Origin: a virus
Reading direction: 5' to 3' (one strand)
IMG/VR virus record: IMGVR_UViG_3300042879_001583
Coordinates: 1-42,903 of that record
Length of the DNA stretch: 42,903 nt
Of the stretch, positions 18,488 to 38,774 are shown piece by piece. The notes under the pieces are model-generated. The model saw only the letters and a program-made list of their open reading frames with translations, searched no databases and was not told the origin of the DNA. How positions within the stretch are numbered: position 1 is the stretch's first letter; the number at the start of each line of letters is the position of its first letter. The translations under genes were made by a program, and so were the position numbers.

Positions 18488-18518
18488 TAATCATTACCTT
18501 AACAAAATCAATAATTGT

Positions 18519-19091: not shown

Positions 19092-19108
19092 TATACCAGT
19101 TTTTTAGG

Positions 19109-19116: not shown

Positions 19117-19119
19117 AAG

Positions 19120-19191: not shown

Positions 19192-19199
19192 ATAAAAAG

Positions 19200-19512: not shown

Positions 19513-19533
19513 AAACCTCCTAACTCATTGATT

Positions 19534-19567
19534 ATGATACATTAAAAAGGGGGTTTTGTCAACCCCC
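19534..19567 (-). promoter_or_regulatory. Composite pstS terminator and downstream promoter
   Basis: On the minus strand a GGGGGTT/AACCCCC hairpin (19549-19567) followed by TTTTT terminates pstS. The hairpin apex carries TTGACA (19557-19562), and TATCAT lies exactly 17 bp further on (19534-19539), 22 nt upstream of the 52-aa gene. The same DNA appears to stop one transcript and start another. Confidence 0.72.
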
Positions 19568-19576
19568 CTCTATGTA

Positions 19577-20554
19577 TCACTTCTCACCCATACCGATTTG
19601 TTGCACCTTAATACGGGAACGATTCAGAATAGAACCAGAAAGAGGAACATAACCGAGATCATCAGCAATCGACTGAGCCTTAGAGCTCAGAGCGTAGTTC
19701 AGAGCATCACGAACAGCAGATGCCTTACCAGGAGCATAACCACTCTTATAAGCAATAATCCAGGTCAGAGTAGAGATAGGATAGGCACGAGCACCTGCGG
19801 GATTGGGGTCTTCGCCAGCAAGAGTCACAGGATCCAGTTTGATACCGTTCAGAGCGGCGGCACCAGTCACAGCAGAAGGTCCAACAAACTTACCTGCCTT
19901 GTTCTGAAGCACGGCAGCTTGGAGTTTGTTAGCACGAACAAATCCAGTATTCAGATAACCGATACCACCAGGAGTGTTGGAAAGAGTTCCAGCAACACCT
20001 TCATTACCTTTTGCACCGACTCCAACAGGCCAATTGATGGATTTACCAACACCAGCAGTCCAACCACCAAAAGCATCCAGAGAGTTGGTGAATGCATAGG
20101 TAGTTCCAGAACCGTCTGAACGATGAACAACTCTGATAGAACCAGCAGCACAACCAACTTGCTTCCAGTCCTTGATACGACCTGCAAAAATATCAACAGT
20201 TTGCTTCTGAGTCAGTTTCAGTTTGCAACCAGGTTTGTTATAAGCAACAGCAATCGTTCCACCCACCATAGGAATCTGAACAACACCACGCTTTACTTTT
20301 GCTGCTTCTTTTGCTTTGATGGGTTCGTCGCTTGCTCCGAAGTCAACTGTGCCCGCAACAAATTGACGAATACCAGCACCAGAACCAACGGACTGATAAT
20401 TAACCCTGTCCCCAGTAGTTCGTGCATAATCTTGGAACCATCGTTGATAAATTGGTGCAGGGAAGGTAGCACCAGCACCATTGAGAATAGGTCCAGCAAG
20501 TGCAGTGGTAGGAGCAAGAGCAAGACCGAGTGTAGCAATGTGTTTGAGTTTCAT
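19577..20554 (-). CDS. pstS: Periplasmic phosphate-binding protein PstS
   Basis: The 325-aa protein has a signal peptide (MKLKHIATLGLALAPTTALA) and then GPILNGAGATFPAPIYQRWF, VNYQSVGSGAGIRQFVAGTV, VDFGASDEPI and HRSDGSGTTYAFTNSL, the phosphate-binding loops of PstS. It binds phosphate in the periplasm and hands it to the host PstCAB transporter. Pho-box-like repeats and a TACAAT -10 lie upstream, so host PhoB/SphR may induce it during phosphate starvation. pstS is known in cyanophages. A porin gene lies upstream. Confidence 0.96.
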   Translation of the reverse strand: MKLKHIATLGLALAPTTALAGPILNGAGATFPAPIYQRWFQDYARTTGDRVNYQSVGSGAGIRQFVAGTVDFGASDEPIKAKEAAKVKRGVVQIPMVGGTIAVAYNKPGCKLKLTQKQTVDIFAGRIKDWKQVGCAAGSIRVVHRSDGSGTTYAFTNSLDAFGGWTAGVGKSINWPVGVGAKGNEGVAGTLSNTPGGIGYLNTGFVRANKLQAAVLQNKAGKFVGPSAVTGAAALNGIKLDPVTLAGEDPNPAGARAYPISTLTWIIAYKSGYAPGKASAVRDALNYALSSKAQSIADDLGYVPLSGSILNRSRIKVQQIGMGEK

Positions 20555-20576
20555 AAAAATTAAAAACTTCTTTGTA

Positions 20577-20609
20577 ATTGTACTCGATTAAGTTTAAGAG
20601 AAAGTTAAA
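20577..20609 (-). promoter_or_regulatory. Pho box and -10 upstream of pstS
   Basis: On the minus strand TTTAACTT (20602-20609) and CTTAAACT (20591-20598) are separated by 3 nt, matching the cyanobacterial Pho box layout of two PyTTAAPyPy(T/A) octamers (8/8 and 7/8 positions). Eight bases later comes TACAAT (20577-20582), a -10. No good -35 is present, as expected for an activator-dependent promoter. Confidence 0.72.
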
Positions 20610-20620
20610 TGTCACCAAAC

Positions 20621-20648
20621 ACCAAAAAACCTCCCCGAAAGGAGGTTT
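20621..20648 (-). terminator. Intrinsic terminator of the porin gene
   Basis: On the minus strand AAACCTCC (20641-20648) pairs with GGAGGTTT (20627-20634) around a 6-nt loop, followed by more Ts. It lies about 20 nt after the porin stop. Confidence 0.85.
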
Positions 20649-20666
20649 AGAGGTATCAGGATATTA

Positions 20667-22145
20667 TCAGAACCTGAAACTGGTCTGAATCACACCACCG
20701 TAGTTAGAAGATGCGTTCTTAAATGCCTGATTATTGGAGACATAGAAGATTGCAGGGGTGATGCTGATGTTATCACTAACCTTGTAACGATAGAAGGCTT
20801 CCCACATCAGAGCATCCTTACTCAGGGTAGGTGCATTGCCAGGTTGACCGATGGCGAAACCAGAGGCATTACCCTTAGCAAACACATCGCTCCACTGAAC
20901 GCCTGCCATCCAAGTCTGAGAGTTGGTTGCAGCATTAGGAGTTGCAGGACCACTCACATAGTTCCAACCATAAGCAGCACTCACAGAAGGAATAATACCA
21001 GAGGTCTTAGGTTGCCAGTAAGCATTCAGAGCATAACCGTTGGAGGTTTGGTTAGCGGCAAGAGTACCAGCATTACCAGCAACACCATTAAAGGTACGAA
21101 CGCGAGTGCCTTCAGTACCATTACGATAACCAAATGCGATACCGTACTGAGGAGCACGATAACCGAACTGTGCCAGAGTATTCAGAGCACCAGAGGCATC
21201 AAATTCACCTTTGGTAGAATCAGAACCGTTCTGAGCAACATAGTTCAGGTTAGCAACGAAACCTTTCTTACCTGCTTGTGCCCACTGAGCACCGAAACCA
21301 GAACCAGTTGCCTTGTTGTAGACACCAGGAGCACCAGCAACAGCAAAGAAGTCAAGAACATCCGACTTATAAGCAGTAGGAATCCATGCCATCTCAGTGT
21401 TCCGAACCAGAGCACCAGCAGTCAGGGTTACGCCCTTAGCAAGTGCTGGGAAACTGTAGTACAGACGATCAAGATTGACTTGGTTCGCATAAGATTCTGC
21501 CTTATCCAGTTTGAACAGAGAAGAGGAAGAACCGAAAGGTTGCGAAGAGAAGTTACCAGAACGCAGACGAGTGCGAAGCAGGTCCTTACCAGTGAACGAA
21601 GTGTCAAAATTCAGACGAAGATCGTAGTTAAATGCAGTGTTGCCAACGTTAGAATTGTTAGCAAGACGAGCACCTTCTACGCCACCAAGAACAAAGGTTG
21701 CTTCACCCTTGAGTTTGGTTGTGGTAGAGAACTGAGTTGCCTGAAGTTGACCAACCTGAGTTTCCAGTTTAGCAACACGACCACGAATGACAGTGAGTTC
21801 ATTAGAGAACTCATTCATCAGACGAGAAAGTTCATCAGTAACTTCAGTTACACGATCAAGGCAAGCATTCAGAAGTGCTGCTGCCTCAAAACGGGTCATT
21901 GACTTACCACCACCATAGGTGCCATCTGGATAACCAGCAACACATCCATAACGCTCAACAAGATTATTGAGTGCCTGATATGCCCAATCAGTGGGCTTTA
22001 CATCAGACAATTGAGTGATACTCGAAACCTGCTCAGAAGAAGTGTATTGGTTGACTGCTGCCATATTAAGGTCTGCCGCATTCGCAGCAACAGGAGCAAC
22101 CATTCCCAGAGCAACAGGTGCAAGCATCAGTTGTTTGAGTTTCAT
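20667..22145 (-). CDS. Cyanobacterial-type outer-membrane porin (SLH plus OprB)
   Basis: The 492-aa protein has a signal peptide (ending ANA, ~24 aa), an SLH domain at about residues 40-98 (SDVKPTDWAYQALNNLVERY and MTRFEAAALLNACLDR), a coiled coil at about 100-135, and an OprB/Som-type barrel to the C-terminal Phe (VIQTSFRF). These are the major porins of cyanobacterial outer membranes; the SLH domain binds the peptidoglycan-linked polymer. It is clearly host-derived. In the phage it may keep or change nutrient uptake; beside pstS, phosphate entry is a fair guess. Confidence 0.92.
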   Translation of the reverse strand: MKLKQLMLAPVALGMVAPVAANAADLNMAAVNQYTSSEQVSSITQLSDVKPTDWAYQALNNLVERYGCVAGYPDGTYGGGKSMTRFEAAALLNACLDRVTEVTDELSRLMNEFSNELTVIRGRVAKLETQVGQLQATQFSTTTKLKGEATFVLGGVEGARLANNSNVGNTAFNYDLRLNFDTSFTGKDLLRTRLRSGNFSSQPFGSSSSLFKLDKAESYANQVNLDRLYYSFPALAKGVTLTAGALVRNTEMAWIPTAYKSDVLDFFAVAGAPGVYNKATGSGFGAQWAQAGKKGFVANLNYVAQNGSDSTKGEFDASGALNTLAQFGYRAPQYGIAFGYRNGTEGTRVRTFNGVAGNAGTLAANQTSNGYALNAYWQPKTSGIIPSVSAAYGWNYVSGPATPNAATNSQTWMAGVQWSDVFAKGNASGFAIGQPGNAPTLSKDALMWEAFYRYKVSDNISITPAIFYVSNNQAFKNASSNYGGVIQTSFRF

Positions 22146-22171
22146 AAAAATGTTTTATGTACTATAGGACA

Positions 22172-22264
22172 AATGAGGTTTTGTAGATAAAACCTCAGTA
22201 TTTAGAGAGTCTTAAGCAAATCTTAAGATGGAAGTATCTTACAGCACTTTTGGTCTTATGTCAA
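22172..22264 (-). promoter_or_regulatory. Regulatory region of the porin gene
   Basis: On the minus strand a TTGACA-17-TAAGAT promoter (22236-22264) is followed by three octamers at an 11-bp period: CTTAAGAT (22220-22227), CTTAAGAC (22209-22216) and CTAAATAC (22198-22205), each separated by 3 nt as in Pho boxes. The third contains the late box CTAAATA. A 9-bp hairpin (TGAGGTTTT with AAAACCTCA) follows at about 22172-22195 in the leader. Early, host-regulated and late expression all look possible. Confidence 0.6.
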
Positions 22265-22281
22265 CTAAGATTTGGTTAAGA

Positions 22282-22353
22282 AGCGGATTAGGGGATTCGA
22301 ACCCCTGACGAACTGCTTGGAAGGCAGCCATTCTACCACTGAATTAAATCCGC
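22282..22353 (-). tRNA. tRNA-Gly(UCC)
   Basis: A 72-nt cloverleaf: acceptor GCGGATT/AATCCGC, anticodon loop CTTCCAA, T loop TTCGAAT, discriminator U. Last gene of the main tRNA array in the direction of transcription. Confidence 0.94.
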
Positions 22354-22461
22354 AATGGTGGGGATTTACCCAGCCTCAGGTTTCCCTTCACAGGCACGGA
22401 ACCCCACGCACTTCACTTCACACGGACATGAGAAGTATAAGACATAATAAAAATTATGTCA
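22354..22461 (-). other. Spacer in the tRNA array
   Basis: No gene is seen. It contains short complementary stretches such as GGTGGGG with CCCCAC, so it may fold after tRNA processing. Confidence 0.4.
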
Positions 22462-22533
22462 AGCCCCCGACAAGATTCGAACTTGCGACCAGCGGTTTAC
22501 AAAACCGCTGCTCTACCACTGAGCTACAGAGGC
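22462..22533 (-). tRNA. tRNA-Thr(UGU)
   Basis: A 72-nt cloverleaf: acceptor GCCTCTG/CGGGGGC with two G-U pairs, anticodon loop TTTGTAA, T loop TTCGAAT. A tRNA-Thr(GGU) is also present in the array. Confidence 0.92.
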
Positions 22534-22659
22534 AAATGAGTAGTGAGTGCCCACCACTCGCGGAAGACACTCTCCGCAACTAGCGGGGGTGATCAAATCC
22601 CCGACCTAAGAAATCTTAGGATTTAGTAAGGAAGACCCGAATATTTCCAGACCTTCCGA
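22534..22659 (-). other. Structured spacer in the tRNA array
   Basis: No ORF of note. It holds consecutive inverted repeats: GCGGA/TCCGC, GGGG/CCCC and a near-perfect CCTAAGA-AA-TCTTAGG hairpin. These could be processing signals or a small stable RNA. Confidence 0.4.
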
Positions 22660-22732
22660 CTGGGGCGGCAGGGATCGAACCTGCGACCTAGATGTTAACA
22701 GCATCCCGCTACTACCGCTGAGCTACACCCCA
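22660..22732 (-). tRNA. tRNA-Asn(GUU)
   Basis: A 73-nt cloverleaf: acceptor TGGGGTG/CGCCCCA, anticodon loop CTGTTAA, T loop TTCGATC, discriminator G as in bacterial tRNA-Asn. Confidence 0.93.
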
Positions 22733-22797
22733 ATATTTGTTTTTATGTGTAAGGGAAAGGAGAGCTCTTGGACGGAACCGCAGGATCACTTTCCCAG

Positions 22798-22868
22798 TGG
22801 AGAATAGCAGAATCGAACTGCTAATAAGTGCTTGCAAAGCACCCGTTATACCGTTTAACTAATTCCCC
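22798..22868 (-). tRNA. tRNA-Ala(UGC)
   Basis: A 71-nt cloverleaf: acceptor GGGGAAT/ATTCTCC with the alanine identity pair G3-U70, anticodon loop TTTGCAA, T loop TTCGATT and a 4-nt variable loop. The palindromic anticodon region could be misread as Cys on the other strand. Confidence 0.92.
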
Positions 22869-22875
22869 AAATTGG

Positions 22876-22947
22876 AGGCGGGGGGTGGAGTTGAACCACC
22901 TACCTGAAGCTTATGAGACTTCTGTGCAACCATTACACTTCCCCACG
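22876..22947 (-). tRNA. tRNA with CAU anticodon (Met type, initiator-like acceptor)
   Basis: A 72-nt cloverleaf with encoded CCA at 22873-22875: acceptor CGTGGGG/CCCCGCC leaving a C1-C72 mismatch, anticodon loop CTCATAA, T loop TTCAACT. An unpaired 1-72 position is the hallmark of bacterial initiator tRNA, but the three G-C pairs of the initiator anticodon stem are absent. Elongator Met or lysidine-Ile remain possible. Confidence 0.82.
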
Positions 22948-23067
22948 ATGAAGGGTTAAGTGTGATACACCTCATCAGGATGTAACAGGGACTCAACCTC
23001 CAACAATTTATATATTAAGGTATTTCCAAGAGTTTGTCAATACCTTTGAACCAGTTTAAAAAGTGTC
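22948..23067 (-). other. Spacer between tRNA-Met and the HNH gene
   Basis: No gene. A hairpin AAGGTATT/AATACCTT (about 23019-23048) lies just downstream of the HNH stop on the minus strand and may protect the mRNA end or weakly terminate. Confidence 0.45.
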
Positions 23068-23538
23068 CTACTGAAAGAGATATTCTTTCCATTCAGAAAC
23101 TTTTGTTTTCTGAAGATCCAAAACTACTCGACTAATTGGAGATTCTGGAGTCTTTTGTAAAACCATATTGGTTTCTTTAAGAAGTTTATCTCCTTTTTTA
23201 AGATTACAATCTGTGCAGCAAGCAACCAAATTTTCCCAAGTATCTTGACCACCTTTAGAACGAGGAATTACATGGTCGATTGTAAGATCATTTTTAGATC
23301 CACAATACTGACATTCATAATCATCCCGTTTATATATCAGTGCTCTCGTTGGGTAATTAGATTTTCCATAGGAAAATGGAAGTTTCACATAATTTACCAA
23401 ACGAATAATTCTCTTGGAAATGAGTTTTGCCTTTTGTTTAAAGAGCAAAACAATTGCACGTTTCCAATTAGTAAAGTGTAGTGGTTCGTAAGAACTATTC
23501 AGAACTAGTACAATCGAATGTGGTTCTACTAATTCCAT
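23068..23538 (-). CDS. HNH endonuclease
   Basis: The 156-aa protein has a complete HNH domain in its C-terminal half: DDYECQYCGSKNDLTIDHVI with Cys76/Cys79 and catalytic Asp89-His90, then PRSKGG, and WENLVACCTDCNLKKGDK with the Asn and the second zinc Cys pair. The N-terminal ~60 aa (VLVLNSSYEPLHFTNWKRAI) are typical of bacterial and phage McrA-like HNH proteins. It sits inside the tRNA array and has a CTAAATA late promoter (23561-23567). It may be a free-standing homing enzyme or a packaging or DNA-degradation nuclease. Confidence 0.93.
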   Translation of the reverse strand: MELVEPHSIVLVLNSSYEPLHFTNWKRAIVLLFKQKAKLISKRIIRLVNYVKLPFSYGKSNYPTRALIYKRDDYECQYCGSKNDLTIDHVIPRSKGGQDTWENLVACCTDCNLKKGDKLLKETNMVLQKTPESPISRVVLDLQKTKVSEWKEYLFQ

Positions 23539-23560
23539 TTTCCTATCACACCTCTATTGA

Positions 23561-23567
23561 TATTTAG
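23561..23567 (-). promoter_or_regulatory. Late promoter for the HNH gene
   Basis: The minus strand reads CTAAATA 22 nt upstream of the ATG at 23538, the cyanophage variant of the T4 late box. Confidence 0.65.
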
Positions 23568-23578
23568 ATTTAAAATGG

Positions 23579-23650
23579 CACCCTGAGAGGGATTTGAACC
23601 CCCGACTTCTTCGTTCGTAGCGAAGCACTCTTCCACTGAGTTACCAGGGC
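23579..23650 (-). tRNA. tRNA-Arg(ACG)
   Basis: A 72-nt cloverleaf with CCA encoded (23576-23578): acceptor GCCCTGG/TCAGGGT, anticodon loop CTACGAA, T loop TTCAAAT, discriminator G. Confidence 0.92.
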
Positions 23651-23654
23651 GTGG

Positions 23655-23726
23655 CGAAGGGTGAGGGATTCGAACCCCCATCGCAAGGTTTTGGAGACCT
23701 GCATCTTACCATTAGACCAACCCAAC
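23655..23726 (-). tRNA. tRNA-Trp(CCA)
   Basis: A 72-nt cloverleaf with CCA encoded (23652-23654): acceptor GTTGGGT/ACCCTTC shows two U-U mismatches at pairs 2-71 and 3-70, anticodon loop CTCCAAA, discriminator G. The weakened acceptor stem may be edited or simply decaying. Confidence 0.87.
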
Positions 23727-23730
23727 AAGG

Positions 23731-23803
23731 TGTCCGTGAGAGGATTCGAACCTCCAACACCTACCCCCTCAAGGTAGTGCCTCTTCCATTGGGCTACACG
23801 GAC
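23731..23803 (-). tRNA. tRNA with GAG anticodon (Leu codon CUC), short variable loop
   Basis: A 73-nt cloverleaf: acceptor GTCCGTG/CACGGAC perfectly paired, anticodon stem CTACC/GGTAG, loop TTGAGGG, T loop TTCGAAT, discriminator A. Leu tRNAs are normally class II with a long variable arm, but here it is only about 5 nt. Confidence 0.85.
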
Positions 23804-23807
23804 TTAG

Positions 23808-23879
23808 TTCCAGAACTAGGATTCGAACCTAGATGAACGCCTTCAAAGGGCGGTGTCCTGCCAGTTAGACGATTCTGGA
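23808..23879 (-). tRNA. tRNA-Gln(UUG)
   Basis: A 72-nt cloverleaf: acceptor TCCAGAA/TTCTGGA, anticodon loop CTTTGAA, T loop TTCGAAT, discriminator A. Confidence 0.92.
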
Positions 23880-23884
23880 ATAGG

Positions 23885-23960
23885 AGTTCAGGGTGGGATT
23901 CGAACCCACGATGATAGAAGTTTTGCAGACTTCCGCATTCGACCACTCTGCCACCTGAAC
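23885..23960 (-). tRNA. tRNA-Cys(GCA)
   Basis: A 76-nt cloverleaf: acceptor GTTCAGG/CCTGAAC, anticodon stem GAAGT/ACTTC, loop CTGCAAA, T loop TTCGAAT, discriminator U as in bacterial tRNA-Cys. Confidence 0.92.
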
Positions 23961-23964
23961 AAAG

Positions 23965-24036
23965 AGCCCTCAGTGAGAATCAAACTCACGACCTCATTCT
24001 TACCAAGAATGCGTTCTATCACTGAACTATGAGGGC
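23965..24036 (-). tRNA. tRNA-Thr(GGU)
   Basis: A 72-nt cloverleaf: acceptor GCCCTCA/TGAGGGC, anticodon stem CATTC/GAATG, loop TTGGTAA. The T loop is TTTGATT, with U instead of the nearly universal C56. Confidence 0.9.
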
Positions 24037-24038
24037 GG

Positions 24039-24109
24039 GGTGACGTATGGGAATTGAACCCATCTGGGCGGTTCCACAAACCGCTGCCTTACCACTAGGA
24101 TAACGTCAC
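24039..24109 (-). tRNA. tRNA-His(GUG)
   Basis: A 71-nt cloverleaf: acceptor GTGACGT/ACGTCAC, anticodon stem GCGGT/ACCGC, loop TTGTGGA, discriminator C, T loop TTCAATT. The -1 position would be U in the transcript rather than the usual encoded G. Confidence 0.92.
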
Positions 24110-24110
24110 A

Positions 24111-24184
24111 TAGCAGTAGGTGGATTTGAACCACCGTCCATAGGAATATGAGTCCCGTACTCTACCAGACTGAGCTATACTGCC
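24111..24184 (-). tRNA. tRNA with CAU anticodon, second copy (elongator Met or Ile2)
   Basis: A 74-nt cloverleaf: acceptor GGCAGTA/TACTGCT (G1-U72), D arm GCTCAGTCTGGTAGAGT, anticodon loop CTCATAT with a weak stem, T loop TTCAAAT. It could be elongator Met or an AUA-reading Ile tRNA needing lysidine. Confidence 0.85.
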
Positions 24185-24188
24185 AAGG

Positions 24189-24271
24189 CGGAAGATGTTG
24201 GATTCGAACCAACGGAGGTTTTACCCTCACGGTTTAGCAAACCGCTGCATTAACCGCTCTGCCAATCTTCC
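24189..24271 (-). tRNA. tRNA-Ser(GCU)
   Basis: An 83-nt class II tRNA: acceptor GGAAGAT/ATCTTCC, identical to that of the tRNA-Ser(UGA) at 16886, anticodon loop TTGCTAA, long variable arm (GAGGGTAAAACCTC), discriminator G. Confidence 0.93.
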
Positions 24272-24284
24272 ATATCGTAGGTGT

Positions 24285-24368
24285 ATCATTTGAGAGGATT
24301 TGAACCTCCATTGCCGCCCTCCAAAACGCAAGTGCTATGGCGGAGTGTTACCGTTACACTACAAATGA
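24285..24368 (-). tRNA. tRNA-like gene with a 20-nt anticodon loop (isotype undetermined)
   Basis: The minus strand shows a perfect acceptor stem TCATTTG/CAAATGA, D arm GTGTAACGGTAACAC, T arm with TTCAAAT, and a perfect anticodon-position stem CCGCC/GGCGG. The loop it closes is 20 nt (ATAGCACTTGCGTTTTGGAG) instead of 7. No class II fold fits. Removing 13 nt could restore a 7-nt loop, for example one with UGG. It may be an interrupted, special-purpose or decaying tRNA. Confidence 0.7.
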
Positions 24369-24584
24369 TATCCTTACGTTGCTTACTCCTAGATTCTACT
24401 CATCAGATTTACTTGTTGGACCTAATCGTTGGAATACTCGCTGCGTTCAACTTATTACCCTGTCTCGACTTGAACGAGACTGTTTTCTATAGCCTTTGCG
24501 TTTGTTAGTAATAAGCATACTGACAGGTTTCTTTTACCTTTCAGTTTTCCGTTCAACCCAACTTTGGAATAAAGTTTGGGCAAG
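24369..24584 (-). other. 216-nt spacer with a lone T-arm-like hairpin
   Basis: No credible protein gene. The minus strand has GTCTCG-TTCAAGT-CGAGAC at 24462-24480, a perfect 6-bp stem closing a 7-nt loop that looks like a tRNA T arm, but no matching acceptor stem was found. It could be a tRNA remnant or a small RNA. Confidence 0.4.
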
Positions 24585-24656
24585 TGGAACCGACAAGATT
24601 TGAACTTGTGACCGCACCCTTATCAGGGGTGTGCTCTACCACTGAGCTACGATTCC
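24585..24656 (-). tRNA. tRNA-Ile(GAU)
   Basis: A 72-nt cloverleaf: acceptor GGAATCG/CGGTTCC, anticodon stem CACCC/GGGTG, loop CTGATAA, T loop TTCAAAT, discriminator A. Confidence 0.94.
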
Positions 24657-24777
24657 ATCAAGGTAGGAGTCGATATCAACAACCTACCAGTTTCAGTTTT
24701 CGGACTGAAAAACCTATCACTAACCAACCGAAGTTTCATAACGGAGGAAGTGAATCTCCGTGACCATAAAGGTCAAG
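24657..24777 (-). other. Structured spacer (four successive hairpins)
   Basis: No gene. Inverted repeats in order on the plus strand: GGTAGG/CCTACC, TTTCAG/CTGAAA, ACGGAG/CTCCGT and TGACC/GGTCA. Their density suggests a folded RNA between tRNA-Ile and tRNA-Phe, perhaps a processing signal. Confidence 0.45.
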
Positions 24778-24851
24778 AGGGAACAATCGGATTTGAACCG
24801 ATAACACCATGATCTTCAATCATGTGCTCTACCAATTGGAGCTATGTTCCC
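24778..24851 (-). tRNA. tRNA-Phe(GAA)
   Basis: A 74-nt cloverleaf: acceptor GGGAACA/TGTTCCC, anticodon stem CATGA/TCATG, loop TTGAAGA, T loop TTCAAAT; the discriminator is U instead of the usual A. Confidence 0.93.
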
Positions 24852-24854
24852 AAG

Positions 24855-24928
24855 TCCAGATGAAAGGATTTGAACCTCCGACTTCTCCGCCCCAAACGGA
24901 GTGCTCTACCAAACTGAGCTACACCTGG
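24855..24928 (-). tRNA. tRNA-Pro(UGG), second copy
   Basis: A 74-nt cloverleaf: acceptor CCAGGTG/CATCTGG, anticodon stem CTCCG/CGGAG, loop TTTGGGG, D arm the same as in the first tRNA-Pro (GCTCAGTTTGGTAGAGC), discriminator A. Confidence 0.93.
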
Positions 24929-24932
24929 ATAG

Positions 24933-25005
24933 TAGTCCCAACGGGATTCGAACCCGTGTCTTCACTGTGAAAGAGTGATGTCCTTGGCCTCTAGACGATG
25001 GGACC
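24933..25005 (-). tRNA. tRNA-Glu(UUC)
   Basis: A 73-nt cloverleaf: acceptor GGTCCCA/TGGGACT, anticodon stem TCACT/AGTGA, loop CTTTCAC, T loop TTCGAAT. Confidence 0.93.
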
Positions 25006-25202
25006 AGATGGGAGGGGTATCCCACACGAAGTCACTTATGGATTACGCTTCGTAGCCTTATGAATCCTGCCATCATCCGATGGTGGTTAGGAATCCCTCC
25101 CCAATTCCAGTTATTACTACGACATTCTTCTGCAAACTGGCAACCTCTGAAGAATACGTGCTACAACCACCAAGGAGGGAAACTCCATCGGCAGCGTAGC
25201 GA
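25006..25202 (-). ncRNA. Possible structured RNA with a pseudoknot, in the tRNA array
   Basis: This 197-nt spacer has no good ORF. It carries hairpins 25026-25031/25048-25053 and 25070-25074/25079-25083, then a 7-bp closing stem 25094-25100/25174-25180. That stem encloses two interleaved helices: CCAGTT 25107-25112 with AACTGG 25135-25140, and ATTCTTC 25124-25130 with GAAGAAT 25149-25155. This is an H-type pseudoknot arrangement. The T4 tRNA cluster also contains small stable RNAs of unknown role. Confidence 0.4.
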
Positions 25203-25275
25203 CGACCCTAACGGGATTCGAACCCGTGATACCACCGTGACAGGGTAGCGTGATAGACCACTTCACTATAGGGTC
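25203..25275 (-). tRNA. tRNA-Asp(GUC)
   Basis: A 73-nt cloverleaf: acceptor GACCCTA/TAGGGTC, anticodon stem CTACC/GGTGG, loop CTGTCAC, discriminator G. Confidence 0.93.
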
Positions 25276-25321
25276 AAGAGCACAATCCACTACCAATGGT
25301 ATCATTGGGCAGATCATGCAG

Positions 25322-25412
25322 TGGGAGAGAAGGGAATCGAACCCCCGATGGTTCTAATGTAACGGTTTTACAGACCGCCGCCACACATATTGCCGACAGT
25401 AGCCACTCTCCC
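25322..25412 (-). tRNA. tRNA-Tyr(GUA) with an enlarged D loop
   Basis: A 91-nt class II tRNA: acceptor GGGAGAG/CTCTCCC, anticodon loop CTGTAAA, 15-nt variable arm, T loop TTCGATT. The D arm is about 24 nt (GCTAC/GTGGC closing a 14-nt loop), longer than usual. Confidence 0.9.
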
Positions 25413-25416
25413 ACGA

Positions 25417-25488
25417 TGGGTCTGGTGGGACTCGAACCCACAACTTCCAGGTTAAAAGCCCGTTACTCTACCATTGAGTTACAGACCC
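25417..25488 (-). tRNA. tRNA-Lys(UUU)
   Basis: A 72-nt cloverleaf: acceptor GGGTCTG/CAGACCC, anticodon loop CTTTTAA, T loop TTCGAGT, discriminator A. The outer anticodon-stem pair is not complementary. Confidence 0.92.
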
Positions 25489-25678
25489 GATAATATAGGA
25501 TAAATATTCAGTTGTCTAGGTTCTGGGAGAGGGGTGATCCCTCAACCACTTGATTAGAATACCACCGTTTGGTCTCTGGGGGGAGATTGGTGGACACTTA
25601 GGAAACTGTCACAGGCAACAAAAAAGGGGAGGAAACTTTTGGTTTCTCTCCCCTCTTTGCTTTTATGAATTACATATC
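25489..25678 (-). terminator. Non-coding stretch containing a strong intrinsic terminator
   Basis: No gene is seen here. On the minus strand AGGGGAG-AGAAAC pairs with GTTTC-CTCCCCT (about 25627-25655) and is followed by TTTTTT (25620-25627), ending the transcript of the 33-aa gene. Read-through would be needed for the tRNA promoter at 25983 to reach the rest of the array. Confidence 0.8.
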
Positions 25679-25780
25679 TTACATATGTCTATCCATATCC
25701 GCAAACAGGGGAGCACCCTCAATATGCCAATAGCGGCAATCGAGAATACTAAACTGTTTTGTGGGCATTGGGTAAGACAT
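25679..25780 (-). CDS. 33-aa protein, single-gene late transcript
   Basis: This tiny ORF encodes MSYPMPTKQFSILDCRYWHI followed by a short tail ending DMDRHM. It has a perfect TATAAATA late promoter 22 nt upstream (25802-25809) and a strong terminator downstream, so it looks like a dedicated transcript. No family was recognised. The ORF is short, but the flanking signals make it credible; alternatively the transcript is a non-coding RNA. Confidence 0.6.
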   Translation of the reverse strand: MSYPMPTKQFSILDCRYWHIEGAPLFADMDRHM

Positions 25781-25801
25781 TGTTTTCGACCTAAGTGTTT
25801 T

Positions 25802-25809
25802 TATTTATA
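25802..25809 (-). promoter_or_regulatory. T4-type late promoter for the 33-aa gene
   Basis: The minus strand reads TATAAATA, 22 nt before the ATG at 25780, between two tRNA genes. Confidence 0.8.
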
Positions 25810-25833
25810 AGACTTTTTTCTCAAAAAGTCAAG

Positions 25834-25907
25834 CGCCTCAGGTAGGATTCGAACCTACGGCTAACCGCTTAGAAGGCGGATACTCTAGTCCACTGAGTTA
25901 CTGAGGC
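25834..25907 (-). tRNA. tRNA-Arg(UCU)
   Basis: A 74-nt cloverleaf: acceptor GCCTCAG/CTGAGGC, anticodon loop CTTCTAA, T loop TTCGAAT, discriminator G. It is the first tRNA of the array after its promoter. Confidence 0.94.
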
Positions 25908-31216: not shown

Positions 31217-31333
31217 TTACTTTTTCTTTCCACCGTTTTTTGCCTTTTTGGCAGTTGCGTTTCCCTGATTCTGTTTGGAGTTCTTTTGACCTCCAGCAGA
31301 ACCTTTCTTACCTTTATTTGGTGACTTTGACAT
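31217..31333 (-). CDS. 38-aa strongly basic protein
   Basis: It begins MSKSPNKGKKGSAGGQKNSK and consists mostly of Lys, Gly, Asn and Ser with no hydrophobic core, so it is probably disordered and nucleic-acid binding. AGGAG precedes the start, which overlaps the stop of the previous gene as TAATG. It may condense DNA or bind RNA; this is inferred from composition only. Confidence 0.68.
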   Translation of the reverse strand: MSKSPNKGKKGSAGGQKNSKQNQGNATAKKAKNGGKKK

Positions 31334-31674
31334 TATGCTCCTGTGCGGGGTTGGACATATCCTTCACCCTCATCAACCTTTGTTTCCAGTGCTTCTACTC
31401 TTGCCTCAAGAGTTTCTGGAGCAGGTGGTTCTGGTGGAGTTTCTACTACTTCTTCTCTGCGTGGTTCTTCTTTCTTTTCATCTTCTTCATCACCACCCTT
31501 CTTCATTGTATTAATACCAAAGGTAGCGGCAGAAGCAGTAAAGACCGTCGCAATGAAAGTGGGGTCCATCTTGGATAGAGCCCCAGCATAACTAGCAGTT
31601 AGAAGAGCAGCAGACCATCCTAGGATGGCAATACGAATTACTTGCCCCAAAGCATTCTCCTTTTTCTTGTCCAT
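31333..31674 (-). CDS. Small membrane protein with acidic coiled-coil tail
   Basis: With the ATG at 31674 the protein has 113 aa. It starts MDKKKENALGQVIRIAILGW, has hydrophobic segments (ILGWSAALLTASYAGAL and PTFIATVFTASAATFGIN), then a highly charged, Glu/Pro-rich region ending in a coiled-coil-like LEARVEALETKVDEGEGY. A longer frame upstream runs into the barrel gene and lacks a ribosome site. The late box CTAAATA (31701-31707) is 26 nt upstream. Two spans plus a charged tail are compatible with a holin, but this is only a suggestion. Confidence 0.7.
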   Translation of the reverse strand: MDKKKENALGQVIRIAILGWSAALLTASYAGALSKMDPTFIATVFTASAATFGINTMKKGGDEEDEKKEEPRREEVVETPPEPPAPETLEARVEALETKVDEGEGYVQPRTGA

Positions 31675-31700: not shown

Positions 31701-31723
31701 TATTTAGGTTTTTAGAACCTAAA
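31701..31723 (-). promoter_or_regulatory. Late promoter merged with a hairpin at a gene end
   Basis: The minus strand has TTTAGGTT/AACCTAAA (31703-31723) with the barrel gene's stop codon in the loop. The 3' arm forms part of CTAAATA (31701-31707), the late promoter of the next gene. There is no U-tract. Confidence 0.6.
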
Positions 31724-34036
31724 CTTGACCTTAGCAGCAACAGAATTATTAGTAACTCCGTTGTTTACTCCGTGAGAACCCTCAACAAATAACATTTCTT
31801 TATAATCTACAGAAGCAGTTACATCATAAGAACTATCAGTTCCATAAGAACCTTCTACACTAACACCAAAGAGATCCTTTTTCTTACCACCAAAACGAGT
31901 TTCAAGTTTGAGACCCGCTTCACCAATATGAGTGGTTTGATTAAAGTCACCAACACTTCTTGCAGACTGAATAGACCCAGTTTCAGTGTAAGCATTTCTG
32001 TTTACATTCTGAACGGTATAACCGATAAATGGTTTTACTGCCTTATGTAAATGCCAATATAAACGATTAGACACCCACCACTCAGAACCAGTTGTTTCAC
32101 CAGCATTATTAAAGACACCTTCTACAGTTCTATTATACTTATAGTTGCTGTTCGCAATCGCAGCATTTGTATTCAGAGTGAATGTATTACCTCTGAGTTC
32201 ACTGAATACTCCGAAGTGATCTTTGGTCTGCTGTGTCCTTGAGTCAACACCATTAAGGTTTATGTTGATTTTATTATACTGGAAACCAAGAGTCCAACCC
32301 TTAGTTACATCAAACTCAAATCCACCACCAAAGATCTTGGAATCTGCGTTGTATCCATCAGCATTGTAGGATTGAACAAATCTATTGTTCTCAAATACTC
32401 TTAATCTTTGCTTACCTGTGGTTGGTTCATGATTCAGAAGTCCATTAATACCATCATTAATTCCATCAAGAACTTCTAGTTGATCTACACGACCAAAGAG
32501 AGAATCATAAGTATGAGAAATCGTAACATCATTCCAGAGTTCATAAGTATCAACAGGAGTTCCGTTGGTTACAGTTTCATTTCCAGAAGCATCAGTCGTT
32601 GTTGTAACTGGTGTTGTGGTGATGGTTCTGACCATCGGAGTTGTTGTGGTCTTCGTATGATGTCTTGCGATTCTCTGAACTCCTTTGTTTTCAGAAGCAT
32701 CGTGTTCAGTGAGTGTGATATTTACAACTGGAAGATTTGAAGACTGAACAGATGCCTGAGCAACTGATGGTCTTGTGATTGCGGTTGAGTCAAGTGCGGT
32801 TGCAGTTACAACAGAAGTTGGAGAACCATTTACAGAAGAAGTGGTTACAACTGGTGTTCCTGATGAAGTTGTTGTGGAACCATCAGAATATGTGGTAGTT
32901 GTAACTGGTGTTGTTGTGGTAGTTGTGGTATCAACTGGCGTTGTAGTAACTACGGTATCAGTATAAGTTATAACTCTTGGATTTCCATCAGCATCAGTAT
33001 CTGTAACAGTTCTAGTTACATAAGTCGTCGCAGAACTTGATGATGTAGAAGTAGAACTTGTAACCGTATTTGTGGTTGTAGTTCCTGTGACTGTTGGTGT
33101 AGAAGGAGTTGTGGGAGCAGAAGCAGAACCAGCATCAACAACAGTAAAGGTTGATGGAGTAGAACCACCAGCACCACCAGCAACAGCACCAGAACCAGCA
33201 GCAAACGCAGAAGGTCCAAAAATATATGCGTATTGAATATTTACAATATCTCCAGCAGAAATGCCAGAGAACATAAATCCAAGACCGATGGTGTGGTCTC
33301 CACTTGGACCACCATTTGTTCCATTATAATAATCTTCTGGGTTTGTAGACCAACCAGCACTGATTCCAGAGTTTACACCACCAATCTGACCTGTGAATAG
33401 ACCTAATGCATACTTGGATACTAGTGCTTCAGAAAGGACAACGTTGGTTGCTGGAATACCACCAGCATATCCTCTAGTATTATCTGTTCTAGAACTATCT
33501 CCTGCTGCTGCTCTAGCGTCTGGATCTGTAAATCTACCAAAGTAAAGCGTAGGAACATTAATTAGAAACTCTAAACGAGTATTGATATCAACAAACTGTT
33601 GGTTATCATTAAAACGATAGTCGTGTTCTATATTAAACTCGGTAACAGATCCCGACCATACAGCACGATTATCATAAGTCAATCCGCGATATGAAACACC
33701 AGAATAATCTACAAGTGTTCCAGTAATCTGTGCTCCTCCAACACTATTATTGTTATTATAATAGTTGAAAAGAACAGTTGAACCATCTTTACCTCTAACA
33801 GTAAATCCTTCAAAAGGATTTCCAGGAGTCAGGTAATCGTATGCTGGATTGAACGTTGCGGTTCCAGTTGAATCATACTGAATACCAGGAGAAGTTGCTC
33901 CACCAGAACCAACGGTTCCAGCATCGTTAACTCCAATCTTTACATAGTTCCCCTGTAAAGTAAGGGGTGCAGCGATTGCACTACTACCCATCAAAAGAGC
34001 AGACGCTGCTGCAAGCGCCCTTTTAGCGTAAGACAT
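31712..34036 (-). CDS. Autotransporter-like outer-membrane beta-barrel protein
   Basis: This 774-aa protein has a signal peptide (MSYAKRALAAASALLMGSSA), a globular N-terminal domain (to about 270), then a long Thr/Ser/Val-rich low-complexity stretch (about 280-410, e.g. TTTTTTPVTTTTYSDGSTTT), a second domain, and a C-terminal region of alternating hydrophobic/polar strands ending in KVKFRF, the terminal Phe expected for BAM-inserted barrels. No adhesin family was identified. It may sit in the host outer membrane or be a host-recognition fibre. A GATAAATA late box is 140 nt upstream (34176-34183). Confidence 0.75.
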   Translation of the reverse strand: MSYAKRALAAASALLMGSSAIAAPLTLQGNYVKIGVNDAGTVGSGGATSPGIQYDSTGTATFNPAYDYLTPGNPFEGFTVRGKDGSTVLFNYYNNNNSVGGAQITGTLVDYSGVSYRGLTYDNRAVWSGSVTEFNIEHDYRFNDNQQFVDINTRLEFLINVPTLYFGRFTDPDARAAAGDSSRTDNTRGYAGGIPATNVVLSEALVSKYALGLFTGQIGGVNSGISAGWSTNPEDYYNGTNGGPSGDHTIGLGFMFSGISAGDIVNIQYAYIFGPSAFAAGSGAVAGGAGGSTPSTFTVVDAGSASAPTTPSTPTVTGTTTTNTVTSSTSTSSSSATTYVTRTVTDTDADGNPRVITYTDTVVTTTPVDTTTTTTTPVTTTTYSDGSTTTSSGTPVVTTSSVNGSPTSVVTATALDSTAITRPSVAQASVQSSNLPVVNITLTEHDASENKGVQRIARHHTKTTTTPMVRTITTTPVTTTTDASGNETVTNGTPVDTYELWNDVTISHTYDSLFGRVDQLEVLDGINDGINGLLNHEPTTGKQRLRVFENNRFVQSYNADGYNADSKIFGGGFEFDVTKGWTLGFQYNKININLNGVDSRTQQTKDHFGVFSELRGNTFTLNTNAAIANSNYKYNRTVEGVFNNAGETTGSEWWVSNRLYWHLHKAVKPFIGYTVQNVNRNAYTETGSIQSARSVGDFNQTTHIGEAGLKLETRFGGKKKDLFGVSVEGSYGTDSSYDVTASVDYKEMLFVEGSHGVNNGVTNNSVAAKVKFRF

Positions 34037-34175
34037 AAAAAGTCCTCTATGACTCAGTGTGTACTAAACGAAACAAACTAAAGTTGTTTAAAAGTAAAGT
34101 ATTCACCAAGTCTCAGAGGACTCGGGGTATGTAGATTCAGACCAGTTAAGATCAAGAATCAGTAATGATTGTAAC

Positions 34176-34183
34176 TATTTATC
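34176..34183 (-). promoter_or_regulatory. Possible late promoter of the barrel gene
   Basis: The minus strand reads GATAAATA, overlapping the end of the lysozyme gene and 140 nt before the barrel ATG. The long leader between has no ORF of note. Confidence 0.45.
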
Positions 34184-34850: not shown

Positions 34851-34983
34851 TGTTGCCTCCTATATTTGGAAAGTATATATCGAATAATTCACTTGCTTCT
34901 TTGTGTTTACCGTGATTTGTGAGTTTTTTCACTTCTTCCAGAATTTTTTTCTTAAACTCAGTCGAAGATCCTTCCCCACCCAT
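34837..34983 (-). CDS. Uncharacterised 48-aa protein between lysozyme and C39-like genes
   Basis: The start at 34983 is chosen because AGGAGG lies 5 nt before it; the open frame extends further upstream inside the C39-like gene without a ribosome site. The protein begins MGGEGSSTEFKKKILEEVKK and is helical and charged. It overlaps both neighbours (25 nt and 14 nt). Function unknown. Confidence 0.68.
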   Translation of the reverse strand: MGGEGSSTEFKKKILEEVKKLTNHGKHKEASELFDIYFPNIGGNNGKN

Positions 34984-35629
34984 CATTACCTCCTGGGCAC
35001 CAACGATGCTTGAGAACTGCTTTGGTGTAAATGGTCTTCTTACCATTTGTCACGGGACCAGTATAGTTATCGTTCAGAGAACCATAAGGATCGTTTACAT
35101 AGTATCCTTTGCCGTCTGGTGTCTTACCGATAACTACACACATGTGCCCACCAGTAGGGTTAGATAAAGAACCGCGATGCAGGATACCAATAACAACAGG
35201 TTTCCCAGCATCAAGACTCTTATCAATGTCAGCAAAAGAAAGATTGTAACTAAAGTGTGACTTAACTCCATAACCTGCCAGAACTTTTGTCTGTACCGCA
35301 TGGTCAGTCGTATCGCCAATCGCAAATACTTTTTTGACATACTCATCATCACCTTTAATGCTTCCTGGTTTGAGGAACGCAAGGCACATAGCGCACGATG
35401 AACTGTTACAAGTTCTATGTGCATCTCTGTAGTTGTCTACTTGATTAAAATATGGAACTGCAAGAACTGCTGGCGTTGGTGGTTTGGTTCTAAAAATACC
35501 AATCCAGTCAGTCTCCGAATCATCCATAAATTGAGCAGGAAGGTTATCTTCTAACCACTGAACTGCTGCTACGTGATTTGAATTGCTATCGTCGTAAAAC
35601 TTAAAAAAGTTATGAAGATCTAGGGTCAT
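34958..35629 (-). CDS. C39-like cysteine peptidase with an N-terminal module
   Basis: The 223-aa protein starts with the same module as the lysozyme (LHNFFKFYDDSNSNHVAAVQ, then WLEDNLP). After a Pro-rich linker comes a Peptidase_C39_2-like domain: VPYFNQVDNYRDAHRTCNSS with the likely nucleophile Cys74, GGHMCVVIG with His162, and YVNDPYGS with Asp180. It would cut peptides, possibly peptidoglycan stems or virion proteins. No signal peptide. It precedes the lysozyme gene, so both may be targeted to the same place. Confidence 0.82.
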   Translation of the reverse strand: MTLDLHNFFKFYDDSNSNHVAAVQWLEDNLPAQFMDDSETDWIGIFRTKPPTPAVLAVPYFNQVDNYRDAHRTCNSSSCAMCLAFLKPGSIKGDDEYVKKVFAIGDTTDHAVQTKVLAGYGVKSHFSYNLSFADIDKSLDAGKPVVIGILHRGSLSNPTGGHMCVVIGKTPDGKGYYVNDPYGSLNDNYTGPVTNGKKTIYTKAVLKHRWCPGGNDGWGRIFD

Positions 35630-36335: not shown

Positions 36336-38774
36336 TCAATTGTTATCCATTTTAATTTTTGTTCCTGTTGCTTCACCTTTTCTCTTAGCACCTTTAGATT
36401 GATACCCAGTAATATTCTTATCAGTTAGTTCTTGTCCAGCGAGATATGCCTCTCTGTTCTTACGTCCTGCCGCCTGTCTTTGTGCCTCAATTGCTTTATC
36501 TTTTGCTTTAGTTAAACCAAGCGCACGTGCTGCCTTACCGATGATTCCATCGTCTGCACCAACCGCTTTTGCTTGTTTGATAACCATTTTGTCACCTTTC
36601 TTAGCAAGGTAACCAAGTCCACCTTTACCTAGAGCAATACCACCTTGCTTATTTACATTTGCAGCGGTTTTCATATTCTCTGGAGTTGCAGTCAGTGGTT
36701 TTTTGGCGTTCTGAGAACCAACGAGTGCTTCTTTTCTTCTTGGAGCTTCTTTTTTACCACCAATAGCATTAGAAGCAAGCATACCAGCACCTAGAGCACC
36801 AGCACCTAGAAGTCCTGCGGCGAGAAGTCCTTTTCTACCGCCACCACCTTTGCCAAGTGCTGCAGCGGCACCTTTTGCTGCCTTAGCAACTCCAGTTGCA
36901 GTAGTACCAGCAACTAAAGCACCACTCTTACCACCTGCTTTTGTCATTGCTCCTTTAGGGGAAGAAACAAGTGCTCCACCTTTACCGCCTCCGCCTCCAG
37001 CAGATCCTCCACCAACTAAACCACCACCTTTACCACCACCTTTACCACCTCCAGCAGCAGATGTTGCTGCTTTAGTAACATCTTTAACATTTACTGGTTT
37101 AATAGATGCATCAACCATTTTTCCAGGTTTTGCACCCGATGTTAAAGCACCTGAGGGGGATTTAACAAGGGATCCAGGTTTTCCTGCTTTTGTCATCGCT
37201 CCACCAGGAGACTTAACAAGTGCTCCACCTTTACCACTTCCTTTAAATCCCTTACCAAAGTCCGATGCTGCTTTTTTTAAAGTTTTACCCAACTGCTTAG
37301 TTGCTGGACTCTTAGCAACTTGCCCAGCAATTGATCTTGCCTTATTAATACCAACAATTAGTTTACCTAATGCTGGTAAGATATTTTCAGCAATAAGAAT
37401 ATCAATAAATTCATCTTCAGTATAATCAGATAAATCATAACCTTCAGCAATAAGACCCTCAACAATGAAATTATATTCATCAGCAAGATATCCAGCTTGC
37501 TCTAAAACAATGGACTGGATTGCATCTGAATCCATTTCCATCATTACATAAGATGCTTCTGCAAGAGTGTCAACTTGATTAGTCTCAAAAAGATAATCAA
37601 GAACTACGTCAAAAGCATCATATGATTCTTTTTTAGTTGCCGCTTCTGCTTTCTTTTTATCTTTTTCTTGTTGTGCCTTAAGATCTGCTTCTACTGATTT
37701 TGTATCAATCTTTCCAGCACCTTCTGGGCCACCCATTAATTTTTCACCTCTTTCTGCAGCAGCTTTTACTCCTGCTTCACCACCACCTGCTTTTTTGGAT
37801 GCTTCCATTTCTGCACGAGTTGGAGTTCTTACTTCATATTCAGTTCCACCTTTGGTTTTTCTTGTTGCAAAAGTTTTACCTTCGAGATCCTCATTACCTT
37901 TTCTACCACCAGGTGACAATTGACTTGTTGGTTTTGCTGGTTTTTGTGGTTTAGGTGGTTTTGCTGGTTGTGTTTTAGCACCAGCAGCACCAGATCCAGC
38001 AACAGATGGGGTAGATGGTGCTGCAGGAGCACCTTTTTCAGTTTGCTTAAAGAACTTCTCTCCAGATTGGGAATAAGTTACTTTCCCTTTCTTACCGCCG
38101 AGAACTGCATCATATTCTTTTCCAACTGTAACTTTACCGCCTTTACCACCAGCAGCTGCCACTGTTTGAGGTCCTGATTGTGCTCCAGACTTCTTATCAA
38201 CACTGGCACCAGCACCAGCAAGTTTTGCTCCAGCATATCCTGCTAAACCAGCAGCACCGAGACCAAGAGCAGCTTTACCAATTCCAGGAAGTTTTGGTGC
38301 AACTTTTGCAGCAATATCTTTTACTTTACCTACTGCACCACCGAGTGCCTTTCTAACACCAGGACCAGCAGCTCTTTTGAGGGCAACTTTAGCAGTTCTC
38401 GCAGCAGGAGCAACTGCTTTCATTGCACCTTTACCAAGAAGTTTTAATCCACTTACAATTCCTCCAAGACCTTCATCAAGTCTTGCGAGTTCAGTTTCGA
38501 TATGCTCTTCAGAAACTGTGCCCTCAGAAATCACAGGAGGGTTCATATAATATTCGAGAATATCTGTTTCAGAAGAATTGGTTAGAAAACCAACAACTCC
38601 CTCAGCAGTATGACCACTCGCAATCATATTATATGCAATTGTTGAGAAAATATCCTCAACAAGATTTGCAAGTTCTTCGTCATAATAATCTGAAGTTTCA
38701 TCGAGTGATGATTGATCTTGAGTCGCAATGTGTTCGTAAAGATACGAAATATCCTCTAAGTTAAAACTTGACAT
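36336..38774 (-). CDS. Large Ala/Gly/Lys-rich probable virion protein
   Basis: This 812-aa protein alternates low-complexity basic regions (GGKGGGKGGGLVGGGSAGGG; repeats of GALVKSPGGAMTKAGKPG type) with short acidic helical units such as AFDVVLDYLFETNQVDTLAE and YNFIVEGLIAEGYDLSDY. The same helical unit occurs in the next gene upstream. The composition suggests a head-internal or scaffold-like protein that may be processed, but no family is proven. A TATAAATA box fused to a terminator lies 29 nt before the ATG. Confidence 0.7.
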   Translation of the reverse strand: MSSFNLEDISYLYEHIATQDQSSLDETSDYYDEELANLVEDIFSTIAYNMIASGHTAEGVVGFLTNSSETDILEYYMNPPVISEGTVSEEHIETELARLDEGLGGIVSGLKLLGKGAMKAVAPAARTAKVALKRAAGPGVRKALGGAVGKVKDIAAKVAPKLPGIGKAALGLGAAGLAGYAGAKLAGAGASVDKKSGAQSGPQTVAAAGGKGGKVTVGKEYDAVLGGKKGKVTYSQSGEKFFKQTEKGAPAAPSTPSVAGSGAAGAKTQPAKPPKPQKPAKPTSQLSPGGRKGNEDLEGKTFATRKTKGGTEYEVRTPTRAEMEASKKAGGGEAGVKAAAERGEKLMGGPEGAGKIDTKSVEADLKAQQEKDKKKAEAATKKESYDAFDVVLDYLFETNQVDTLAEASYVMMEMDSDAIQSIVLEQAGYLADEYNFIVEGLIAEGYDLSDYTEDEFIDILIAENILPALGKLIVGINKARSIAGQVAKSPATKQLGKTLKKAASDFGKGFKGSGKGGALVKSPGGAMTKAGKPGSLVKSPSGALTSGAKPGKMVDASIKPVNVKDVTKAATSAAGGGKGGGKGGGLVGGGSAGGGGGKGGALVSSPKGAMTKAGGKSGALVAGTTATGVAKAAKGAAAALGKGGGGRKGLLAAGLLGAGALGAGMLASNAIGGKKEAPRRKEALVGSQNAKKPLTATPENMKTAANVNKQGGIALGKGGLGYLAKKGDKMVIKQAKAVGADDGIIGKAARALGLTKAKDKAIEAQRQAAGRKNREAYLAGQELTDKNITGYQSKGAKRKGEATGTKIKMDNN

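What the first reader, a model, noticed from the sequence alone, without database searches (positions are those of the whole stretch)
31712..34036. Phage-encoded autotransporter-like barrel
A signal peptide, a Thr/Ser-rich stalk-like segment and a C-terminal barrel ending in Phe suggest a protein put into the host outer membrane late in infection. Possible roles are superinfection exclusion, altered surface adhesion, or a virion fibre. The long leader may regulate it.
Basis: partly seen in the sequence, partly recalled or inferred. Interest (0 to 1): 0.6.

Follow-up and report, generated by a model that had tools for sequence, protein, structure and literature searches.

The report
Cyanophage autotransporter with swappable display domains
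A virus of picocyanobacteria carries, beside its cell-bursting genes, a gene for an outer-membrane "autotransporter" that should display a protein domain on the infected cell; relatives have exchanged that domain many times among three unrelated types, two of which also occur in bacterial autotransporters.

Summary
Window 31712-34036 (minus strand) encodes 774 aa: Sec-type signal peptide, ~275-aa N-terminal domain, Thr/Ser-rich stalk (45% T+S), linker helix and a 12-strand barrel ending KFRF. The barrel alone passes Pfam Autotransporter (PF03797, E=4e-15), and its AlphaFold model matches NalP, EstA, BrkA and EspP barrels best. It is a phage-encoded type Va autotransporter.

(2) Domain A (this window) and domain B also head autotransporters of Proteobacteria. 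(3) The gene sits between lysozyme and a small membrane protein (DUF6450), behind a T4-type late-promoter motif. (4) Its ~130-nt leader is a covarying hairpin, absent from Rfam, that buries the start region.

Best reading: a late-made protein displaying an exchangeable domain on infected cells, probably altering phage or cell adhesion near lysis. Anatomy is well supported; the role is inference. A virion fibre is unlikely. UniProt already labels some phage proteins "autotransporter beta-domain"; I found no study of them.

The parts
31712..34036 (-). Autotransporter gene, 774 aa
   Evidence: Open frame; 261 IMG/VR stretches encode relatives of its barrel; purifying selection
33968..34036 (-). 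Signal peptide, residues 1-23 (MSYAKRALAAASALLMGSSAIAA)
   Evidence: Sequence shows basic n-region, hydrophobic core, small-residue c-region; conserved across family. No predictor run.
33137..33967 (-). N-terminal (displayed) domain, type A, residues 24-300
   Evidence: 48-53% identical to the N-terminal domain of alphaproteobacterial autotransporters
32501..33136 (-). Thr/Ser-rich stalk, residues 301-512
   Evidence: 45% T+S; predicted as long beta strands
32435..32479 (-). Linker helix before the barrel, residues 520-534
   Evidence: AlphaFold model
31715..32404 (-). 12-strand barrel, residues 545-774, ending KFRF
   Evidence: PF03797 E=4e-15; model and Foldseek to NalP, EstA, BrkA, EspP
34034..34167 (-). 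Structured 5' leader RNA (model R1)
   Evidence: Covariation above shuffles and slid controls; 151 bits to model R1, which this sequence helped to build; no Rfam match
34040..34123 (-). Main hairpin of the leader; its 3' strand holds AGAGGA just before the start codon
34134..34160 (-). Small upstream hairpin of the leader
34176..34182 (-). T4-type late-promoter motif (ATAAATA)
   Evidence: Motif match; NTAAATA stands upstream of 56 of 61 homologous leaders at type-specific distance; NATAAATA is the cyanomyovirus late motif (PMC2984593)
34179..34850 (-). Phage lysozyme (endolysin), immediately upstream
   Evidence: PF00959 E=1e-21; upstream in 55 of 64 loci
34958..35629 (-). C39-like peptidase (endolysin family)
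   Evidence: PF13529 E=7e-14; phrog_10051 endolysin
31333..31674 (-). Small membrane protein, DUF6450; two hydrophobic stretches, holin-like by eye only
   Evidence: PF20048 E=6e-16; downstream in 58 of 67 loci

Best explanation
A classical (type Va) autotransporter encoded by a lytic T4-like cyanophage. Made late from its own late promoter, it is exported by Sec, its C-terminal barrel is inserted by the host BAM machinery, and the stalk carries an N-terminal domain to the cell surface. That domain is a cassette which phages exchange, probably by recombination between conserved flanks, so the exposed part varies in kind while each domain is kept by purifying selection. The likely use is to change what the infected cell, and its envelope fragments after lysis, bind: masking receptors so that progeny are not lost to infected cells or debris and rivals are excluded, or else acting as an adhesin. 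The leader hairpin probably holds translation back, delaying or limiting insertion of the barrel. Shown by computation: domain order, barrel family and predicted fold, cassette exchange, lysis-gene context, late-promoter motif, covarying leader. Inferred: surface exposure, timing, translational control and the biological role.
For: PF03797 on the barrel; 12-strand model, best PDB matches all autotransporter barrels; domain A heads alphaproteobacterial autotransporters, and the Sphingobium one checked has PATR repeats and a PF03797 barrel; domain B heads a 2004-aa bacterial protein of the same layout; three domain types on one barrel family, 19 changes on the barrel tree; pairs with 94-100% identical front DNA and 87% identical barrels but unrelated domains (L023/L110); purifying selection; lysozyme upstream, DUF6450 downstream; late motif; leader covariation and stability.
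Against: No experiment. The signal peptide was judged by eye. The N-terminal domain could not be modelled. Known exclusion proteins are usually early (PMC9586334), whereas this looks late. Intragenic recombination within the barrel could inflate the number of type changes. Whether cyanobacterial hosts process such barrels was not tested.
Confidence: 0.6

Rival explanations
1. Lysis accessory: the barrel weakens or opens the outer membrane at lysis, in place of spanins, working with the neighbouring endolysins and the DUF6450 protein.
For: Fixed place between lysozyme and DUF6450; late motif.
Against: Does not explain three exchangeable N-terminal domains shared with bacterial autotransporters. 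Most cyanophages with DUF6450 lack the gene.
Confidence: 0.12
2. Virion-associated adhesin or fibre.
For: Late motif; T/S-rich stalks occur in fibres (general knowledge).
Against: Signal peptide; autotransporter barrel; no fibre or tail family match.
Confidence: 0.05
3. Leader hairpin as intrinsic terminator or attenuator, or as an mRNA stabiliser, rather than a translational brake.
For: A U-rich run follows the stem directly in all three leader types; in type II the last bases before the start codon stay mostly unpaired.
Against: Terminator-like sites elsewhere near here are short GC-rich stems with small loops and longer T runs; this stem is long and interrupted with a long apical part, and its U run is broken by C in many members; the start region is strongly paired in most type I and III examples folded.
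Confidence: 0.35
4. A captured bacterial gene without a role in the phage.
For: Kinship of domains A and B to bacterial proteins.
Against: Purifying selection in domain and barrel, fixed context, conserved promoter motif and leader, wide spread.
Confidence: 0.03

Closest known systems
Type Va (classical) autotransporters, Pfam PF03797: NalP, EstA, BrkA, EspP, Hbp
   Same: Signal peptide, N-terminal passenger, linker helix, C-terminal 12-strand barrel ending in Phe.
   Different: Phage-encoded, in a lysis neighbourhood with a late-type leader; Thr/Ser-rich stalk in place of a long beta-helix; passengers swapped between close relatives.
Autotransporters of Sphingomonadaceae and Caulobacteraceae (L125-L134)
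   Same: Same N-terminal domain A at the same position (48-53% identity).
   Different: They join it to a long PATR-type passenger; the phage joins it to a short Thr/Ser-rich stalk and a different barrel subfamily.
'Autotransporter beta-domain containing protein' of uncultured Caudovirales phages (A0A6J5R861, A0A6J5L9T3, A0A6J5KUW0)
   Same: Phage proteins with the same barrel class; best structural matches in BFVD.
   Different: Database labels only; I found no paper on them. Their genes were not compared here.
T5 Llp and similar superinfection-exclusion proteins
   Same: Phage protein acting at the outer membrane to keep phage from binding infected cells and lysed fragments (possible shared role).
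   Different: Llp is a small early periplasmic lipoprotein that acts on FhuA (PMC9586334); this is a large, probably late, autotransporter with unknown target.
Inhibitory hairpins of T4 genes e, soc and 49
   Same: Hairpin over the translation start of a T4-type late gene near a late promoter (PMC3014915).
   Different: In T4 gene e the structure blocks longer early transcripts; here the promoter motif lies upstream of the whole hairpin, so late RNA should keep it.

Membership tests
Type Va autotransporter (PF03797) | C-terminal barrel of the autotransporter family | tested here: met
   56.7 bits, cut-off 26
Type Va autotransporter (PF03797) | 12 strands preceded by a helix, autotransporter fold | tested here: met
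   AlphaFold model, and Foldseek best matches NalP (TMt 0.72), EstA, BrkA; prediction, not a solved structure
Type Va autotransporter (PF03797) | N-terminal Sec signal peptide | tested here: inconclusive
   Clear by eye and conserved; no predictor available
Type Va autotransporter (PF03797) | C-terminal aromatic BAM signal | tested here: met
   Phe at last and third-last positions, invariant in 24 homologues; the usual Gly of the motif is not conserved
Type Va autotransporter (PF03797) | N-terminal passenger of a kind found in autotransporters | tested here: met
   Domains A and B head bacterial proteins of autotransporter layout
Type Va autotransporter (PF03797) | Beta-helical passenger (common, not universal) | tested here: inconclusive
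   No beta-helix or PATR family matched; stalk modelled as long strands; N-terminal domain not modelled well
Type Va autotransporter (PF03797) | Passenger carried across the outer membrane | not testable with these tools
   Needs experiment
Trimeric autotransporter adhesin / YadA-type phage tail protein | Short trimeric YadA-type anchor or YadA head repeats | tested here: not met
   No YadA family match; single-chain 12-strand barrel instead
Superinfection-exclusion protein (functional class) | Blocks adsorption or entry of related phage | not testable with these tools
   Needs infection assay
Superinfection-exclusion protein (functional class) | Early expression (usual) | tested here: inconclusive
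   Promoter motif points to late expression; no transcript data
Known Rfam RNA families | Leader matches a covariance model | tested here: not met
   No match at gathering score; best below-threshold hit is a chance miRNA-type match at E=2.4; leader types II and III also none

The most novel reading that the evidence does not exclude
Lytic cyanophages run a cassette display system: a late, RNA-gated autotransporter shows one of a few interchangeable surface domains, giving infected cells and their debris a phage-specific adhesion or exclusion type, and the leader hairpin is a new class of phage translational switch that times outer-membrane insertion to lysis.
Probability: 0.2. Interest if true: 0.82.

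Novelty: new variant of a known kind. Interest (0 to 1): 0.6.

Why it matters
To my knowledge the phage-made outer-membrane proteins that have been studied are few and mostly small. A full autotransporter with exchangeable N-terminal domains, two of them shared with Proteobacteria, kept beside the lysis genes of T4-like cyanophages, suggests that lytic phages rebuild the surface of dying cells in a type-specific way. It gives a concrete gene, defined cassette boundaries and a defined RNA element with which to test control of superinfection, loss of progeny on debris, or cell adhesion in picocyanobacteria. The covarying leader is a candidate new RNA family.

Tried and rejected
Full-length Pfam, PHROG and NCBIfam scans found nothing useful; scanning the barrel alone did. 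Virion fibre rejected. Known RNA family rejected for the leader. The pattern-based search of bacterial genomes for the phage barrel found none, which is weak evidence because it sees close patterns only. Domain C had no match in 299 sampled genomes, without a positive control. Domain A rang in only the known genome among 337 sampled class members, so it looks rare. The DSL-LC02 barrel as query gave no relatives. Cyanobacterial host genomes could not be searched, as no handle for one was reached.

Full report
What is there. The ORF lies at 31712-34036 on the minus strand, 774 aa. From the sequence: signal peptide (1-23), N-terminal domain (24-300), a Thr/Ser-rich stalk (45% T+S in 306-512) and a C-terminal domain ending SVAAKVKFRF. 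The whole protein matches no Pfam or PHROG family and has only a chance NCBIfam hit, but the C-terminal 292 residues alone match Pfam Autotransporter at E=4e-15, more than twice the cut-off. The AlphaFold model, built on 25 sequences, shows a helix and then 12 strands at good confidence; the N-terminal domain is poorly modelled. Foldseek against the PDB returns NalP, EstA, BrkA, EspP, Hbp and AaaA first. The barrel identification therefore rests on two partly independent tests.

Where it comes from. The window is an IMG/VR virus record. Its ribonucleotide reductase genes match T4-like Synechococcus and Prochlorococcus phages. The autotransporter has relatives in the Kyanoviridae genomes DSL-LC02 and DSL-LC03 from a lake, where it is labelled 'hypothetical' and 'autotransporter outer membrane beta-barrel domain-containing protein'. 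In IMG/VR 261 stretches encode relatives of the barrel (fragments and near copies included). Only two of 50,697 phage records have it, although 389 carry the downstream DUF6450 gene, so it is an optional gene in this group. Twelve IMG/VR records and the two phage genomes were searched: each holds one copy except one 4.9-kb contig with two convergent copies.

Cassettes. Seventy-five distinct members with a complete front fall into exactly three N-terminal types (C 37, A 21, B 17), with no BLAST link between types. On a tree of 73 barrels the type changes at least 19 times where two would do; well-supported branches alone force at least 10, 8 and 7 changes for C, A and B. Individual pairs make it plain: L023 and L110 have identical leaders, 94% identical signal-peptide DNA and 87% identical barrels, yet domains B and C. 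Within types dN/dS is about 0.08-0.4, in the domain and in the barrel. So variation comes by exchange of whole domains rather than by rapid point change. Among type A members the length before the barrel clusters near 400, 515 and 590-630 residues, which suggests one, two or three ~100-aa stalk repeats; this was read by eye and not tested as a repeat.

Bacterial kin. Domain A (48-53% identity over about 255 residues) is the N-terminal domain of long proteins in Sphingobium, Sphingosinicella, Sphingomonas, Phenylobacterium and a Caulobacteraceae MAG; the Sphingobium one was checked and has PATR repeats and a PF03797 barrel. Domain B heads a 2004-aa protein from another genome of the same phylum, with what looks by eye like an extended autotransporter-type signal, PATR-like repeats and a barrel-like C-terminus. 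Domain C found no bacterial match in a small sample. Two of the three phage domains thus occupy the same position in bacterial autotransporters, which is the best evidence that they are displayed domains. The direction of transfer was not tested.

Context and timing. Lysozyme lies immediately upstream in 55 of 64 loci and DUF6450 immediately downstream in 58 of 67. ATAAATA at 34176-34182 fits the cyanomyovirus late motif NATAAATA (PMC2984593). In the window as a whole the motif is no commoner than chance (10 seen, 10.5 expected), but NTAAATA stands upstream of 56 of 61 distinct homologous leaders, at -134 to -149 in one group and -100 to -109 in the other. This is good but indirect evidence for late expression.

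Leader. Between the motif and the start codon lies a ~130-nt RNA with a small hairpin and a long interrupted hairpin that abuts the start codon. On 31 sequences 14 of 31 pairs show changes on both sides (3.9 +/- 1.4 in shuffles) and 95.5% of cells pair, against 25-49% when slid. Eight leaders folded have energies 3.2 to 7.6 standard deviations below shuffles. A second leader type (II), with an unrelated stem sequence, has the same layout, though its pairs vary little and give only weak covariation. Both leader groups occur with A, B and C domains, so the leader goes with the front of the gene and not with a given domain. In type I the AGAGGA and, in the window, the AUG are paired in the predicted fold; all 16 type II leaders and 10 of the others lack a Shine-Dalgarno-like motif. 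Model R1 finds it once per record, only here, apart from matches to the same place on the opposite strand, and it matches no Rfam family. T4 uses hairpins of this kind on genes e, soc and 49 (PMC3014915), but in gene e the structure acts on early read-through RNA. I read it as a translational brake, with attenuator or mRNA stabiliser as live alternatives.

Role. The anatomy points to surface display in infected cells. Cassette exchange argues for interaction with something variable outside the cell. Two uses fit: masking or altering receptors (excluding rivals and saving progeny from infected cells and debris, the purpose given for exclusion proteins in PMC9586334), or adhesion. The phage also carries a set of nucleotide-sugar and glycosyltransferase genes next to a wcaG RNA, which suggests wider surface remodelling. 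Late timing argues for action near lysis. A lysis-accessory role is possible but does not explain the cassettes. None of this has been tested experimentally.

Novelty. BFVD lists three 'autotransporter beta-domain' proteins from uncultured phages as its top matches, so such barrels in phages are already annotated. I found no publication on them in the library searched, and a search of the DSL-LC paper for the word found none; subscription journals were not covered. New here are the cassette exchange, the bacterial kinship of two displayed domains, the lysis-gene setting and the leader RNA.

Noticed in passing
window 11047-11144 (-): wcaG RNA (Rfam RF01761, 98.9 bits) at the head of a run of nucleotide-sugar and glycosyltransferase genes (window 208-10983, minus strand): GDP-mannose dehydratase, GT2, GT47, aminotransferase.
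   Followed up: partly
window 11994-25907 (-): 25 tRNA genes by Rfam in this phage fragment, most between 22282 and 25907.
   Followed up: no
L144 (IMGVR_UViG_3300049893_001559) 3-1109 (+) and 3435-4868 (-): Two convergent autotransporter genes on one 4.9-kb contig, each followed by its own DUF6450-like gene; may be a real duplication or a chimeric assembly.
   Followed up: partly
L003 4181-4552: DSL-LC02 has a second small signal-peptide protein (123 aa, ends KVRYSF) annotated 'outer membrane protein' beside its glycosyltransferases.
   Followed up: partly
L026 5857-8081: The autotransporter frame is interrupted here near the start of the stalk (one frame ends at 6945, the barrel lies in another): assembly error or disrupted copy.
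   Followed up: no
window 36336-38774 (-): 812-aa Gly/Lys-rich protein with repeated motifs and no Pfam or PHROG match, directly behind an ATAAATA motif.
   Followed up: no
window 31333-31674 (-): DUF6450 membrane protein, present in 389 cyanophage records, looks holin-like by eye (two hydrophobic stretches, charged tail) and follows the endolysin/autotransporter genes; function unknown.
   Followed up: partly
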